Assembly: GCA_026981635.1 (NCBI GenBank)
Contig: JALSIF010000055.1
Location: forward strand, 1-5,016
DNA from: a bacterium
GTDB lineage: Bacteria > 4484-113 > JALSIF01
Reading direction: 5' to 3'
Length of the DNA stretch: 5,016 nucleotides
The translations under genes and the position numbers were made by a program. Below the pieces are notes generated by a model that had not been told where the DNA came from, made no database searches, and saw only the letters and a program-made list of their open reading frames with translations. This document shows, in pieces, positions 1-5,016 of this stretch (positions are counted from its first letter, which is position 1; every line of letters begins with the position of its first letter).

Positions 1-906
1 TCCCTCTTGGTGGCCAATCTAAGGCTTTCCAGGGGAGAGCGCCCGCCCATCCGGTTTGTGGTGAGAAACCCGGACTACCGCCAGAGGCTCACCCAAGGGA
101 TTGAGGTAAGAAGCCTTGCCGGCGAAGCCCTCGGCACCCTCAGGCTCTCTCCGGAGGAGCTGGTGGCACAGTTGCCGGACCCTCCCTTCCTGACCGAGTT
201 GGTGGTGGTCGCGGTGCGGGCCTACCAGGTGGCCGAAGTGAGGAGCCGGCTAGGTGGGATGGCGCGGGATGCCCTGTTTGTCTTTAACGGCATGGTTGAG
301 CCGCCCCCCCGGCTGGTGGGGGTGCTGAGCGCTGGGGCCAGTCTGAGGGATGACCATCTGGCCATCTCCACAAGCGGCGAGCTTGAGGTCTGCTTTGAAG
401 GAGGGGCAGGGGACAGCCCCAGCCTAAGCCCTCTCCTTAGCGGCCCCTATCTCACCGTCTATGAGGTAGGCTCCCGCGCCCCCCAGTACCTGAAGCTTGC
501 CCTAAACGCCACCGTAAATCCCCTTGCCGCCCTGGTGGGCCAGCCCAACCGGTTGGTGCTGGAGGAGCCCCTGGTGGGAGTGGCCCGGAAGGTAATGGAA
601 GAGGTGGCCGGCCTCTACCAGAAGCTGGTTCCCCAATATGCCTTCACCTTTGAGGAGCTGTGGGAGGAGCTTTCGGACCTGGTGGAGAGGACGGCGGAGA
701 ACTTCTGCTCCACCCTGATGGACCTGAGGCTTGGACGCAGGACCGAGATTGAGTTCATCAGCGGCTGGCTGGTGGAGCAGGGGGCAAGGCTGGGAGTTGA
801 CCTTCCCCTAAACCGCCGGCTCACTGCCCTGGTGCTCTCCTTCCCCGCCCGTGGCGGGCGTTTCTTCACCCCCGAGGAGCTCACCCGGGAACTGGGGCTC
901 AGATAG
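1..906 (+). CDS. panE: 2-dehydropantoate 2-reductase (ketopantoate reductase), 5' end cut by the window
   Basis: Likely cytosolic NADPH-dependent reductase that turns 2-dehydropantoate into (R)-pantoate for pantothenate and CoA synthesis. Numbering residues from the TTG at base 7, landmarks match E. coli PanE in order and spacing: Asn94 in FNGM (E. coli Asn98), Lys163 in YLKLALN (catalytic Lys176), Asn167, then a C-terminal helical domain with ENFCSTLMDL (Ser235, E. coli Ser244) and RRTEIEF (Glu247, catalytic Glu256). Ser-to-Glu spacing is 12 in both. The frame is open to base 1, and the first codons (S-L-L-V-A-N) look like the helix just after the Rossmann GxGxxG loop, so the true start and the glycine motif lie about 40 bases upstream. 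The TTG at 7 is not the start. An oddity is VAVRAYQV, with Arg71 where the family usually has Lys (E. coli Lys72). The gene converges on rmuC. A paralogous PanE-family reductase acting on another 2-keto acid cannot be excluded. Confidence 0.86.
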   Translation, partial: SLLVANLRLSRGERPPIRFVVRNPDYRQRLTQGIEVRSLAGEALGTLRLSPEELVAQLPDPPFLTELVVVAVRAYQVAEVRSRLGGMARDALFVFNGMVEPPPRLVGVLSAGASLRDDHLAISTSGELEVCFEGGAGDSPSLSPLLSGPYLTVYEVGSRAPQYLKLALNATVNPLAALVGQPNRLVLEEPLVGVARKVMEEVAGLYQKLVPQYAFTFEELWEELSDLVERTAENFCSTLMDLRLGRRTEIEFISGWLVEQGARLGVDLPLNRRLTALVLSFPARGGRFFTPEELTRELGLR

Positions 907-932: not shown

Positions 933-2198
933 CTAGACACCCTGGACATCGTCCAGTTCGCCAGCTTCCAGGGCGGCGGCCTCGCCTGCGGGGAGGGCCT
1001 CCAGCTCCTCGTCGCTTGCCCCCCGCAGGCGGTAAAGGCTGTCCAGCTCGGCCCTCAGGCGGCCGAGCTTCCTCATTGCCTCCTCAATGTTGCTCTTGGC
1101 CCAGCCGGTTTGGCGGTCGCTGGTCTGGATACTCTTTTCCACCTCGTCTAAAAGCTGGCTCAGGCGGTTTAGGGAAACCAGCACCATTTTGGCCTGGCGC
1201 TCTATGCGCTTGCCCTGTAGGGCAACCAAGGCCGCGCTCAGGTAGGCGTAGAGGGAGTTTGGGCTAACCGGAATCACCTTATGCTCTTTTGCGTAGCCCA
1301 CCGTCCTGTCGCTAAGCTCAGGGCTGAGGATCTGGAAGTAGACCTTCTCGCTGGGGATAAACATCATGGCCAGATCCAGTGTGCCCTGATCCTCCCTGAT
1401 GTACTTGGAGCTAATTTCCTCTACCCGCTTTTGGAAGTCCCTAACAAACTCCTTTAGGGCTCGATTCTTCTCCCGCTCGTCCTGGGCTTCCCAGTAGCGG
1501 CGCAGGTTCTGGAGGGGAAACTTGGAATCAATGGGAAGCCAGCGGTCATCGCCCACCTTGACCGCCGCATCCACCCGGTTTCCCCCGATCTCGTGTTGCA
1601 GGCTGAACATGTCTGCCGGCAGGATGTCCCGCAGGATGTTCTCCAGCATCTTCTCGCCAAACTCGCCGATGGCCTTGGGGCTGCCCAGGGCACTCTCCAA
1701 GCTCCGGCTCAGGCGCTCCAACTCGCCCTGTGCCTCGGCCAGCGCACCGAGCTGCTTGCTGAGCTGCTGGATCATCTCGCCGGTGCCAGAAAGCTTTTCC
1801 GTGACCTGCTTGCTCACCTCTCCTACCTGCTCAAGGAGGGATTGGCGAAGCTGTTCAATGAGCTTTCGGCTCTTCTCGTCCGATTCGCCGATGGACTTCT
1901 GGAAGCGGCTTATGGTCTGATCAATCTGGTTTCGGAAGTCGGCTAGCTTCTTTTCTACTTCCTGCCTGACCTCGGCCGACTGCTTTTGACCTCGCTCTAG
2001 CTGCTTTTCGGCAAACCCAGAAATCTTTTCTTCTATCCTCCGAATCTCCCCCTCCAGCCGCTCAAGCTGGTGCAGGTCCGTCTGGGTGGGACCGGCAAGG
2101 CCGACTCTGCGGCTAAGCAGAAGGTAGGCCAGCACGAATCCAAACAGGGTGGCAGCAATCACTACCCCAAGGACAACAAGGTCCAGTCCTTCAGTCAT
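933..2198 (-). CDS. rmuC: RmuC family DNA recombination protein
   Basis: RmuC proteins have a predicted nuclease-like core and are linked genetically to limiting rearrangements at inverted repeats; the biochemical activity is poorly known. This 421-residue protein has the full family architecture. A single N-terminal membrane helix spans about residues 7-28 and ends at an Arg pair. A long charged coiled coil runs from about 40 to 172, rich in E, K, Q and R. The conserved core starts at GEFGEKMLENIL (178-189), continues through NRVDAAV (Asp210) and LPIDSKFPLQ (Asp224, Lys226), consistent with a PD-(D/E)xK-like fold, and includes MMFIPSE (278-284) and VSPNSLYAYL (311-320). The tail after about 395 is acidic and Ala/Glu-rich, probably disordered. 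Where most relatives have Trp in GxWGE, this one has Phe. The ATG start is supported by a strong Shine-Dalgarno sequence and by the membrane helix beginning at once. It is probably the last gene of the trpS-orf206-rmuC operon. The family assignment is secure and the function is inferred. Confidence 0.94.
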   Translation of the reverse strand: MTEGLDLVVLGVVIAATLFGFVLAYLLLSRRVGLAGPTQTDLHQLERLEGEIRRIEEKISGFAEKQLERGQKQSAEVRQEVEKKLADFRNQIDQTISRFQKSIGESDEKSRKLIEQLRQSLLEQVGEVSKQVTEKLSGTGEMIQQLSKQLGALAEAQGELERLSRSLESALGSPKAIGEFGEKMLENILRDILPADMFSLQHEIGGNRVDAAVKVGDDRWLPIDSKFPLQNLRRYWEAQDEREKNRALKEFVRDFQKRVEEISSKYIREDQGTLDLAMMFIPSEKVYFQILSPELSDRTVGYAKEHKVIPVSPNSLYAYLSAALVALQGKRIERQAKMVLVSLNRLSQLLDEVEKSIQTSDRQTGWAKSNIEEAMRKLGRLRAELDSLYRLRGASDEELEALPAGEAAALEAGELDDVQGV

Positions 2199-2209
2199 TT
2201 TCTACTCTT

Positions 2210-2216
2210 CCTCCTC
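2210..2216 (-). promoter_or_regulatory. Shine-Dalgarno sequence of rmuC
   Basis: The minus strand reads GAGGAGG here, overlapping the TGA stop codon of the upstream 206-residue gene (2215-2217). Its 3' end is 11 bases from the rmuC ATG. It is the only strong ribosome binding site in the window. Its overlap with the preceding stop suggests rmuC is translated by ribosomes coming off the upstream gene, and it fixes the rmuC start. Confidence 0.75.
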
Positions 2217-2835
2217 AGGGGTTTAGGTTATATATACTATCCAGGCCAAAGCATATTTGATGCATTCCAGCAATGTTCTCGCTTATCAGGGCATACTGGC
2301 GGGCAAGCTCACCGTTGAGCAAGGCGGCGAGAGCAGCCTGGTTGGCGGGGTGTTCCTCGGAGGCGAGGAGGTTTATTAGCTCCAAAATTCTGCCTGCGGA
2401 GGAAAGGTAGGCGAGGATGGCCTCAAAGGTCTTGCCGAACTCCTCCATCAGCAGACCCGAGGATAGCTCCCGCCTGAGACGCAGGACTTCCTCCTCTTCC
2501 ATAGGGGAGCTGTGGGACAGCCCTCGCTGAAACTTTCTGACCAGCGCAGGGTAGTCGTAGTCGTCCCAGAGCAGAAGCCGCGGAAAGAGGGGGGCAAGGT
2601 GGCCCATTAGTTCTGCCCTAAGCTCTTGGGCTCTGGCCGCAGCCCGGCAGAGCTCCTGGTAGAAGGGAATCACATTCCTGTCGTCTATTCCCTCCCCGGC
2701 GATGGCCTTAGCGGCTTTGAGGAGGTCGGTGAAGTGGGTGGAAAGCTCAGTGAGCTTCTGGTTTAGCCTGCCTGCGGGGGGCGAGCCGGGAAGGTAGCGT
2801 TCTAGCAGGGCCTGGGTTAGGAGGGATTTATCCAC
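2215..2835 (-). CDS. Unrecognised helical protein of 206 residues, between trpS and rmuC
   Basis: I do not recognise this protein. It is rich in Leu, Ala, Glu and Arg and reads as almost entirely alpha-helical, with no signal peptide, membrane segment, cysteine cluster or obvious catalytic motif; the only cysteines are in ELCRAA and QICFGL. The least repetitive part is LLLWDDYDYPALVRKF (about residues 88-103), followed by an acidic run EEEE (117-120). The C-terminal half is a series of amphipathic helices (EFGKTFEAILAYL, GRILELINLLA, AALAALLNGELARQY). The chosen start is GTG at 2833-2835, 10 bases after the trpS stop. It has no clear Shine-Dalgarno sequence, and the frame stays open back into trpS, so the start is uncertain. 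The ORF exactly fills the space between trpS and rmuC on the same strand, ends within the rmuC ribosome binding site and shows the same codon style, so it is very likely a real co-transcribed gene. The function is unknown. Confidence 0.75.
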   Translation of the reverse strand: MDKSLLTQALLERYLPGSPPAGRLNQKLTELSTHFTDLLKAAKAIAGEGIDDRNVIPFYQELCRAAARAQELRAELMGHLAPLFPRLLLWDDYDYPALVRKFQRGLSHSSPMEEEEVLRLRRELSSGLLMEEFGKTFEAILAYLSSAGRILELINLLASEEHPANQAALAALLNGELARQYALISENIAGMHQICFGLDSIYNLNP

Positions 2836-2845
2836 CGGGAAAAGC

Positions 2846-4198
2846 CTAGTCGGCCGCCACCCTGGCGGGGGAGAAGTAGTTGATCTTCATCGCCTCCCTG
2901 ACCTCGCTTATGGTCTGCTTGGCCACCTGGCGGGCGCGGCGGGTCCCCTCAATCAGGATCTCGTCCACCTCGTCCATGCGCTTCTCCCACTGGTGGCGCC
3001 GCTCGCGGATGGGGGCCAGGATCTCGTCCACCCTTGCCGCCAGCTCCTTCTTACAGGCCACGCATCCTCTCAGTCCGTGGACGCACTGGTGGCGCACGGT
3101 GGGTTCGCCCTCGGGGTTGAAGACCTGGTGCCAGGCGTAGACCCGGCAGACGTCGGGCCGGCCGGGGTCGGTAGGATGGATGCGACCCGGGTCGGTAACC
3201 CCCTGGCGGATGACGGCCCAGATCTCATCGTAGTCGTCGGCCAGGTTGATCACGTTGCCCAGGGACTTGCTCATCTTCTCGTCCCCGGTGATTCCCTTTA
3301 GCACTCCCTTGGTGTCCTGGGCGCCGATCTCCCTTAGCCGGATGAGTTCGTCCTTGGCCCACTGGACAAGGCTTTCTGCCGGTAGGTTGCTTTCAGTTGG
3401 GTGTTCGGCAAGAAGTTTTGCCACCCCCTGGGCAAGCTTCTCAAAGCCGGCCTCACTGTCTGCTGGGCTTGCCTCATCGCTGAACAGCCCGGCCGCCTCG
3501 GCAAGGCTTAGATCGGTATAGCGGGCAAGAAACCCCTCCAGACTGAGATCTAGGCTGGGGGGCCGGTAGGACCAGTACCAGCGCTCCAGGGGGGAGGGCT
3601 CCCCCTCCGCTCCGCCCACCATGGCGATGGGCTCAATGAGGATCTCTTCGCCACCGCCGTAGAGGCGGTTGAACTTGCGCACCAGCTTGCGGCAAAACTC
3701 AATGTGGGGGACCTGGTCCCTGCCCACCGGGACCAGCTTGGCCTTAAAGATGGTGATGTCTGCCGCCTGGCTTACCGGGTAGCCCAGGAAGCCGTAGTTG
3801 AGCTCCAGGCGGCCCTTCTTCCCCTCCAGGGCGAAGTTGATGCCCAGCTGCTGGGCCTCGCTTTTTAGGGTGGGGTTGTGGAAGAGCTGGTGGACCGAGG
3901 CAAGCATGGAGAGGTACATGGTGAGCTCGTGGATCTCGGGGATCATGGACTGGATGCAGATGGTGGTCCGCTCCGGGTCAATGCCCACCGCCAGGTAGTC
4001 CAAGGTCACCTCGCGCACGTGGCGGGAAAGCTCCTCCTGGCGGTCCCAGTGGGTGGTGAGGGCCTGCACATCGGCAATCAGGATGTAGCAGTCGTAGCCC
4101 TCCTCCTGCAGGCGCACCCGGTTGCGCAGGCTGCCCACATAGTGCCCCAGGTGGAGCTTGCCGGTTGGTCGGTCTCCAGTGAGCACCCGCTCGCCCAT
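2846..4198 (-). CDS. trpS: Tryptophan--tRNA ligase, Fe-S type with large insertion
   Basis: Class I aminoacyl-tRNA synthetase that charges tRNA-Trp with tryptophan in the cytosol using ATP. The start VLTGDRPTGKLHLGHYVGS carries the HIGH signature as HLGH (16-19), and DEKMSKSLGN (306-315) is the KMSKS loop. The core motifs YPVSQAADI (140-148) and VGRDQVPHIEFCRKL (158-172), used in amino acid and ATP binding, are intact. The ATG places HIGH at the usual distance from the N-terminus. Two features stand out. At 450 residues it is over 100 longer than typical bacterial TrpRS (about 330), mainly from an extra block at about 191-297 just before KMSKS. In the C-terminal tRNA-binding half, Cys351, Cys372, Cys379 and Cys382 are spaced C-x20-C-x6-C-x2-C, nearly the C-x22-C-x6-C-x2-C that holds a [4Fe-4S] cluster in Thermotoga maritima TrpRS. 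There is no Shine-Dalgarno sequence at normal distance; AAAGGAAAG lies about 20 bases upstream. It is probably the first gene of an operon with orf206 and rmuC. Confidence 0.97.
   Translation of the reverse strand: MGERVLTGDRPTGKLHLGHYVGSLRNRVRLQEEGYDCYILIADVQALTTHWDRQEELSRHVREVTLDYLAVGIDPERTTICIQSMIPEIHELTMYLSMLASVHQLFHNPTLKSEAQQLGINFALEGKKGRLELNYGFLGYPVSQAADITIFKAKLVPVGRDQVPHIEFCRKLVRKFNRLYGGGEEILIEPIAMVGGAEGEPSPLERWYWSYRPPSLDLSLEGFLARYTDLSLAEAAGLFSDEASPADSEAGFEKLAQGVAKLLAEHPTESNLPAESLVQWAKDELIRLREIGAQDTKGVLKGITGDEKMSKSLGNVINLADDYDEIWAVIRQGVTDPGRIHPTDPGRPDVCRVYAWHQVFNPEGEPTVRHQCVHGLRGCVACKKELAARVDEILAPIRERRHQWEKRMDEVDEILIEGTRRARQVAKQTISEVREAMKINYFSPARVAAD
3053..3148 (-). other. Predicted [4Fe-4S] cysteine motif inside trpS
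   Basis: This segment encodes residues 351-382 of TrpRS. The four cysteines are at 351, 372, 379 and 382, the last three within QCVHGLRGCVACKKE. The spacing C-x20-C-x6-C-x2-C matches the Thermotoga maritima TrpRS cluster site except for two fewer residues in the first gap. It sits just after KMSKS, in the domain that recognises the tRNA anticodon, as in Thermotoga. The spacing is read directly; cluster binding is inferred by homology. Confidence 0.8.
3308..3628 (-). other. Insertion of about 105 residues in TrpRS, ahead of the KMSKS loop
   Basis: Ordinary TrpRS passes from the FNxLYG...EP segment to a short linker and then the KMSKS loop within roughly 20 residues. Here EEILIEP (184-190) is followed by about 107 extra residues before GVLKGITGDEKMSKS. 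The inserted block starts with an aromatic, Pro-rich patch, ERWYWSYRPP (205-214). It continues with Leu/Ala/Glu-rich helical sequence (LEGFLARYTDLSLAEAAGLF, then FEKLAQGVAKLLAEH) and ends near LVQWAKDELIRLREIG. The reading frame and codon style are continuous with the flanks, so it is a domain insertion, not a frameshift artefact. Borders are approximate because I judged them by eye from the known family pattern. No function is known to me. Confidence 0.72.
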
Positions 4199-4321: not shown

Positions 4322-4531
4322 TTAGGGCTGGTAGCGTACCCCGACGATCTTTTCCTGCAGGTCGGGAGGCAGCCAGCGGTGGTCATAGTCCCTCACCACA
4401 AAGATGGCGTGGCGCCTCACCCCCCACATGGACTGCTTGAAGGAGATGTAGCGCTCCAGCCCCAGCTCCTCAATCCGGCGGATGAACTCCGGGGCGTCCT
4501 CTTTCCTCACCTCAATGTAGTAGTGGTCCAT
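4322..4531 (-). CDS. Unrecognised small protein of 69 residues, downstream of gcvPB
   Basis: I do not recognise this protein. It begins MDHYYIEVRKEDAPEFIRRI and is dense in charged and aromatic residues. It alternates what look like strands (HYYIEVR at 3-9, HAIFVVRDYD at 41-50, KIVGVRYQ at 61-68) with a helix (APEFIRRIEELGLERY at about 13-28), consistent with a small compact alpha/beta fold. It has no membrane segment, signal peptide or cysteines. The only methionines are the start and one in KQSMWG. The ATG start is 31 bases after the gcvPB stop on the same strand, with no Shine-Dalgarno sequence; the bases before it are mostly C. The composition looks like real protein, the ORF neatly fills the gap between gcvPB and the trpS leader, and no competing frame there fits better. 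It is probably co-transcribed with gcvPB, but a role in glycine cleavage is not shown. Confidence 0.72.
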   Translation of the reverse strand: MDHYYIEVRKEDAPEFIRRIEELGLERYISFKQSMWGVRRHAIFVVRDYDHRWLPPDLQEKIVGVRYQP

Positions 4532-4562: not shown

Positions 4563-5016
4563 CTATTCCCTTACTTCCGCCGGTTGCCAGCGCACTACCG
4601 GGTGGCGGTTGGCTTCGGCCTCCTCAATGTGGGAGACGGGCAGGCGGCTCTGGTAGTGGAGGAAGCCCTGAGGATCCTGCTCAATCTCCTCTGCAAACTG
4701 GATCATGAGGTCGGCGAAGTAGTCCAGCGTCTCCTTGCTCTCCGTCTCGGTGGGCTCAATCATCATCGCCTCCTCCACGATGAGGGGGAAGTAGACGGTG
4801 GGGGCGTGGACGCCAAACTCCAGGAGCTTCTTGGCGATGTGGAGCGCCCTTACCCCCTGCTTCTTCTGGCGGACGGCGCTGGCCACAAACTCGTGCATGC
4901 AGGCCTGGGGGTAGGGGATGTGGTAGTGGGAGCCTAGGCGCTCCTTGAGGTAGTTTGCGTTGATCACGGCGTTTTCACTCACCCTTCTCAGCCCTTCCGG
5001 CCCGTGCATGCGGATG
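4563..5016 (-). CDS. gcvPB: Glycine dehydrogenase (decarboxylating) subunit 2, C-terminal part, cut by the window
   Basis: This is the C-terminal third of the P-protein beta subunit of the glycine cleavage system. The P-protein uses PLP to decarboxylate glycine and passes the aminomethyl group to the lipoyl arm of GcvH. The visible sequence is highly characteristic: IRMHGPEGLRRVSENAVINANYL at the right edge, CMHEFV, the GVRALHIAKKLLEFGVHAPT stretch, YFPLIVEEAMMIEPTETESKETLD, and the closing NRHPVVRW. The frame is open through the window edge (Ile-Arg before the first visible Met), so that Met is internal. The PLP-binding lysine region and the N-terminal two thirds lie to the right. The P-protein is a single chain in E. 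coli and is split into GcvPA and GcvPB in Thermus and many thermophiles and Firmicutes; the C-terminus here, ending soon after PVVRW, fits the separate subunit. gcvPA and the other gcv genes are probably upstream, beyond the window. Confidence 0.95.
   Translation of the reverse strand, partial: IRMHGPEGLRRVSENAVINANYLKERLGSHYHIPYPQACMHEFVASAVRQKKQGVRALHIAKKLLEFGVHAPTVYFPLIVEEAMMIEPTETESKETLDYFADLMIQFAEEIEQDPQGFLHYQSRLPVSHIEEAEANRHPVVRWQPAEVRE

What the first reader, a model, noticed from the sequence alone, without database searches (positions are those of the whole stretch)
3308..3628. Extra domain of about 105 residues inserted before the KMSKS loop of TrpRS
Typical TrpRS has a short linker between the LYG...EP segment and KMSKS. 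Here about 107 residues intervene, with an aromatic patch WYWSY followed by helical sequence. An insertion this close to the mobile catalytic loop could affect ATP handling, the dimer interface or tRNA acceptor contact. Its combination with the Fe-S motif may mark a distinct TrpRS subfamily.
Basis: partly seen in the sequence, partly recalled or inferred. Interest (0 to 1): 0.62.

Follow-up and report, generated by a model that had tools for sequence, protein, structure and literature searches.

The report
Extra helical domain in TrpRS hinge
The enzyme that attaches tryptophan to its tRNA in this unnamed bacterium carries a unique, acidic, probably helical block of about 100 amino acids spliced into the hinge beside its catalytic loop; it is a real but lineage-private decoration of an otherwise ordinary enzyme, and its effect is untested.

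Summary
Confirmed: the 450-residue TrpRS (window 2846-4198, minus) has one contiguous in-frame insertion, residues 196-299 (104 aa replacing 4; +100), at window 3302-3613. Aligned on Thermotoga TrpRS (2g36) it replaces R182-K185, inside the published hinge (182-186) on which the ATP cleft opens and closes. The 43 other complete TrpRS aligned have 10-12 residues there; the window has 111. In a 192-genome survey only the window's match breaks at the junction. The insert has no detectable relative in Pfam, NCBIfam, PDB, phages, plasmids, IMG/VR or 289 genomes. AlphaFold2, alone and in context, gives the same five helices at moderate confidence; no PDB fold matches. It is acidic (pI 4.4), which argues against RNA binding. 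Catalytic and Fe-S residues are intact, it is the only TrpRS found, and tRNA-Trp looks standard. A 'distinct Fe-S subfamily' is not supported: all 26 aligned relatives have the four Cys without this insert, and beta/gamma-proteobacterial TrpRS combine them with a different +70 insert. Four of eight readable class-mates have yet another insert elsewhere. Best reading: a lineage-specific, tolerated hinge domain that may bias cleft motion (position like the LeuRS LS-domain). New variant of a known kind.

The parts
2846..4198 (-). trpS, tryptophan--tRNA ligase, 450 aa
   Evidence: ORF; PF00579 2.9e-51; TIGR00233 trpS 235.8 bits over cutoff 176.75; VIA-align Z up to 38 to TrpRS structures
3302..3613 (-). 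the insertion, residues 196-299 (104 aa in place of 4), inside the interdomain hinge just before KMSKS
   Evidence: mapping to TmTrpRS hinge 182-186 from PMC2954223
3566..3580 (-). WYWSY, residues 207-211, end of the first predicted helix of the insert (203-211)
3323..3466 (-). two long predicted helices of the insert, residues 245-265 and 274-292
   Evidence: same helices predicted in context and alone
3263..3277 (-). KMSKS loop, residues 308-312
   Evidence: invariant in alignment A1
4142..4153 (-). HLGH (HIGH-type motif), residues 16-19
   Evidence: invariant in A1
3053..3148 (-). Fe-S cysteines C351-x20-C372-x6-C379-x2-C382
   Evidence: invariant in A1; compare C-x22-C-x6-C-x2-C of TmTrpRS (PMC2954223)

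Best explanation
A canonical Fe-S-type bacterial TrpRS acquired, on its own terminal lineage, a ~100-residue acidic, self-contained helical block inside the flexible hinge (TmTrpRS residues 182-186) that joins the Rossmann domain to the KMSKS/anticodon-binding domain. Shown: the insertion, its exact place, its single-lineage distribution in the genomes held, the intact catalytic and Fe-S residues, and a consistent helical prediction. Inferred: it folds as a small appendage whose ends stay close together, so the hinge still works; the enzyme remains the housekeeping TrpRS; and the main effect of the block is on the rate or extent of cleft opening and closing (a buttress next to the KMSKS loop, as the LS-domain is in LeuRS) or on stability. 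I put about 0.9 on 'real, lineage-private, tolerated hinge domain of a working TrpRS' and about 0.3 on a measurable modulation of the ATP-cleft motion.
For: Exact +100 at one site against 10-12 residues in all 43 other complete rows. Profile alignment to 2g36 puts residues 196-299 in place of R182-K185; KMSKS falls at 193-197 there, as the paper says, which checks the numbering; [quoted passage not shown] All catalytic and Cys positions intact. Only one TrpRS found in the 85%-complete genome, with a standard tRNA-Trp(CCA), A1 and G73 as in relatives. Same five helices predicted in context (block pLDDT about 61-77 over residues 211-280) and alone from single sequence (mean pLDDT 76.5, pTM 0.65). 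Lower GC3 in the insert than in the core (0.69 against 0.90) fits recent gain or weaker constraint. Independent inserts at other sites in relatives show that TrpRS tolerates such blocks. LeuRS LS-domain precedent: it buttresses the mobile KMSKS loop and is not absolutely required (PMC5059758).
Against: One sequence from one metagenome bin; no second genome of the family is held, so conservation, and hence selection on the insert, cannot be tested. Model confidence for the insert is moderate, and the junctions (196-207, 287-298) are below 50. No direct evidence for any effect on catalysis. An 85% complete bin could lack a second TrpRS.
Confidence: 0.6

Rival explanations
1. The block is a neutral filler: a tolerated loop expansion with no role, kept because its ends meet and it does not disturb folding.
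For: No relatives anywhere searched; reduced codon bias in residues about 216-290; class-mates have unrelated inserts of varying length at another loop, present in only one of two genomes of the same genus (G003 against G006).
Against: It is predicted as a compact helical unit from single sequence and is open and in frame on a long branch (0.65 changes per column).
Confidence: 0.3
2. The block contacts the incoming tRNA (acceptor stem) and improves charging.
For: Place next to KMSKS; the LS-domain of LeuRS at the like position guides tRNA into the catalytic site (PMC5059758).
Against: Net charge -10, pI 4.4; tRNA-Trp itself looks ordinary; no RNA-binding family match.
Confidence: 0.1
3. The block is a docking or moonlighting module for another protein (aromatic patch WYWSY and acidic helices), unrelated to catalysis.
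For: Acidic, with an aromatic cluster near its start; protein-protein roles of extra domains are common in eukaryotic aaRSs (own knowledge).
Against: No partner known, no fold match, no neighbour gene that suggests a complex.
Confidence: 0.12
4. Assembly or binning artefact, or an intein-like element.
For: Single contig of a 317-contig bin.
Against: Insert joined in frame on both sides with a full-length core; no other copy of this DNA in the genome; single open frame; no flanking direct repeats; short for an intein and without a Cys/Ser start or His-Asn end (sequence; own knowledge of inteins).
Confidence: 0.03

Closest known systems
Thermotoga maritima TrpRS TM0492 (PDB 2g36), Fe-S-type TrpRS
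   Same: Same fold and active site; four-Cys Fe-S motif in the anticodon-binding domain; best profile match in the PDB
   Different: Hinge is 5 residues (182-186) without insert; Cys spacing x22 instead of x20
Beta/gamma-proteobacterial TrpRS of NCBIfam NF008922 (PRK12283)
   Same: Fe-S Cys motif plus an insertion in the stretch between LYG and KMSKS
   Different: +70 residues lie about 10 residues upstream (between N177 and E189), one conserved clade (100/100 support), no sequence similarity to this insert; window scores 307 against cutoff 572
Class-mates' TrpRS (G001, G003, G005, G007) with an insert at residues about 119-133
   Same: Same host class; large low-similarity insert in a loop
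   Different: Other site (a loop disordered in TmTrpRS, 113-119), unrelated sequence, and normal hinge linker
Leucine-specific (LS) domain of bacterial LeuRS
   Same: Domain inserted just before KMSKS in a class I aaRS; it buttresses the mobile KMSKS loop (PMC5059758)
   Different: Different synthetase, no sequence relation found, present in most bacterial LeuRS; here a single lineage

Membership tests
Bacterial TrpRS (class I, TIGR00233/PF00579) | score over curated cutoff, HIGH and KMSKS motifs, class I Rossmann fold | tested here: met
   235.8 bits over 176.75; HLGH and KMSKS invariant; Z 38 to TrpRS structures
Fe-S-type TrpRS (TmTrpRS-like) | C-x(20-24)-C-x6-C-x2-C in the anticodon-binding domain | tested here: met
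   C351, C372, C379, C382 aligned to the TmTrpRS Cys; x20 is just under the published x21-24
Fe-S-type TrpRS (TmTrpRS-like) | a bound [4Fe-4S] cluster | not testable with these tools
   needs purified protein
NF008922 / PRK12283 TrpRS with insert | score over 572 bits; +70 insert between N177 and E189 | tested here: not met
   307 bits; 11 residues at that site
LeuRS LS-domain (works-like comparison only) | domain homologous to the LS-domain of LeuRS | tested here: inconclusive
   no Pfam or PDB sequence match; fold searches list no LeuRS, which does not exclude it
A distinct TrpRS subfamily (insert plus Fe-S) | insert shared by a clade of more than one lineage | tested here: not met
   only the window among the surveyed genomes and named loci; no other genome of its own family is held

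The most novel reading that the evidence does not exclude
A new all-helical fold inserted in the TrpRS hinge that acts as a built-in regulator of the open-closed motion of the ATP cleft, for instance by responding to a partner protein or a condition of the cell, in a poorly sampled phylum where TrpRS repeatedly gains domains.
Probability: 0.07. Interest if true: 0.65.

Novelty: new variant of a known kind. Interest (0 to 1): 0.33.

Why it matters
The hinge is a well-studied element of induced fit in TrpRS, and every other TrpRS surveyed here keeps it short. A natural enzyme with 104 residues in place of 4 of its hinge is a ready-made test of how much mechanical coupling through the hinge matters for catalysis. 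It also adds to a picture in which an essential synthetase gains private domains at a few permissive loops (three different sites seen here).

Tried and rejected
Homology of the insert to the beta/gamma TrpRS insert or to the class-mates' insert: no similarity. Known domain: Pfam, NCBIfam, PHROGs, PDB sequences, all without a significant match. Copies in the own genome, 289 genomes, phages, plasmids, viral contigs: none (five weak genome hits at E 0.06-0.09 are at chance level). Foldseek and VIA-align of the insert alone: best E 1.4 and best Z 3.7, no meaningful match and no proof of a new fold. Frame-shifted origin: the other frames have stops and the longest open one has no family. Unusual tRNA-Trp as the cause: it is ordinary. 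Transfer of trpS from Syntrophomonadaceae: the tree leans that way, but the class held as one clade is not rejected (p-AU 0.167), and a shared longer loop at residues 119-133 argues for descent with the class. The paper on LS-domain removal (PMC3643597) is not held.

Full report
What is there. The minus-strand ORF at 2846-4198 encodes a 450-residue tryptophan--tRNA ligase. Searches against PDB sequences and genomes break into two segments, query 3-195 and 300-443. In a 46-row alignment the stretch from P190 to G302 holds 111 residues in the window and 10-12 (mostly 11) in the 43 other complete rows; two rows had been cut at their first matching segment and were not counted.

Is it coding? Only one of six frames is open over the block. 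Third-position GC is 0.69 against about 0.90 in the flanking core; the synonymous-codon score against the neighbouring genes is 0.20, far above a uniform-codon null (-0.35 +/- 0.09) and about one standard deviation under the neighbour-usage null (0.27 +/- 0.06). The block is coding sequence, less biased than the rest of this gene, which suggests recent gain or weaker constraint. There are no flanking direct repeats that would suggest a mobile element and no second copy in the genome.

Where is it in the enzyme? The profile alignment to Thermotoga maritima TrpRS (2g36, 12-residue tag), taken with alignment A1, places G195 on S181 and L300 on L186, so the 104 residues replace R182-V183-P184-K185. 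The numbering is confirmed by KMSKS falling on 193-197 and by the Arg182 and Lys185 named in the paper (PMC2954223). That paper the hinge between the Rossmann and anticodon-binding domains and states that the ATP cleft opens and closes by rotation about a hinge between these domains. The insertion is therefore inside the hinge and eight residues before KMSKS (308-312).

Distribution. All eight same-class TrpRS that could be read lack it. In a survey of 192 genomes of 184 genera with a junction-spanning query, 189 matched; every match listed (about 150; the weakest were not listed) crosses the junction in one piece except the window's own, which stops there. The 80 named loci fall into Syntrophomonadaceae-like enzymes without an insert and beta/gamma-proteobacterial enzymes with a different one. 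On a maximum-likelihood tree of the core the window is a single terminal branch near Syntrophomonadaceae; a class clade is not rejected (p-AU 0.167). The genome is the only one of its family held, so whether the insert is shared by its closest kin is unknown.

Other inserts. Beta/gamma TrpRS of the NF008922 type have 78 residues instead of 8 between N177 and E189, in a single clade (100/100). Four class-mates (G001, G003, G005, G007) have roughly 60-130 extra residues in the loop at window residues 119-133, which corresponds to the disordered loop 113-119 of TmTrpRS. None resembles the window's block. Two genomes of one genus (G003, G006) differ in having this insert, so gains or losses are recent there.

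What the block looks like. AlphaFold2 with the 27-sequence alignment gave helices 203-211, 220-227, 232-238, 245-265, 274-292 (block pLDDT mostly 61-77, junctions under 50). Folding the block alone from single sequence gave the same five helices, mean pLDDT 76.5, pTM 0.65. Foldseek and VIA-align find nothing of weight (best E 1.4; best Z 3.7). The block is acidic: 19 D+E, 9 K+R, pI 4.4.

How it most likely works. Everything needed for catalysis and the four cluster cysteines are present, it is the only TrpRS detected, and the tRNA-Trp is ordinary, so the protein is very probably the housekeeping enzyme. A compact domain in a hinge can leave hinge motion intact if its ends are close, and can bias it by its bulk or by packing on either side. 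The LS-domain of LeuRS, also placed just before KMSKS, buttresses that mobile loop and guides tRNA but is not absolutely required (PMC5059758); this is a works-like comparison, not homology. Tested: place, distribution, coding nature, residue conservation. Inferred: folding as a domain, and any effect on motion.

Verdict. This is a real, lineage-private insertion in an interesting place, whose function cannot be judged from one sequence. The change of the nearly invariant Asp at 304 to Thr just after the insert ('ITG' for 'LDG') is a small hint that the hinge end of the KMSKS segment has adjusted.

Noticed in passing
L101, L095, L111, L112 (TrpRS residues about 119-133 in window numbering): Four same-class TrpRS have their own large inserts (roughly 60-130 aa) in a loop that is disordered in T. 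maritima TrpRS; G003 has it and its congener G006 does not.
   Followed up: partly
window 3800-3844 (TrpRS residues 119-133): The window and insert-free class-mates share a loop about 10 residues longer than in other TrpRS (26-27 against 16-17 between residues 110 and 137), a possible class marker.
   Followed up: partly
L002, L016, L040, L043, L045, L055, L076, L081: Beta/gamma-proteobacterial Fe-S TrpRS carry a conserved +70 insert between N177 and E189; I found no paper in the held library that describes a function for it.
   Followed up: partly
window 3287-3289 (TrpRS residue 304): The nearly invariant Asp of 'LDG' before KMSKS is Thr here ('ITG').
   Followed up: no
window 2215-2835 (-): 206-residue ORF just downstream of trpS with no Pfam, NCBIfam or PHROGs match over threshold.
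   Followed up: partly
window 4322-4531 (-): 69-residue ORF between gcvPB and trpS without a family match.
   Followed up: partly
window 933-2198 (-), 4563-5015 (-), 1-906 (+): Neighbours are rmuC, the end of gcvPB and the end of a PanE/ApbA-type reductase; nothing that points to a TrpRS complex.
   Followed up: yes
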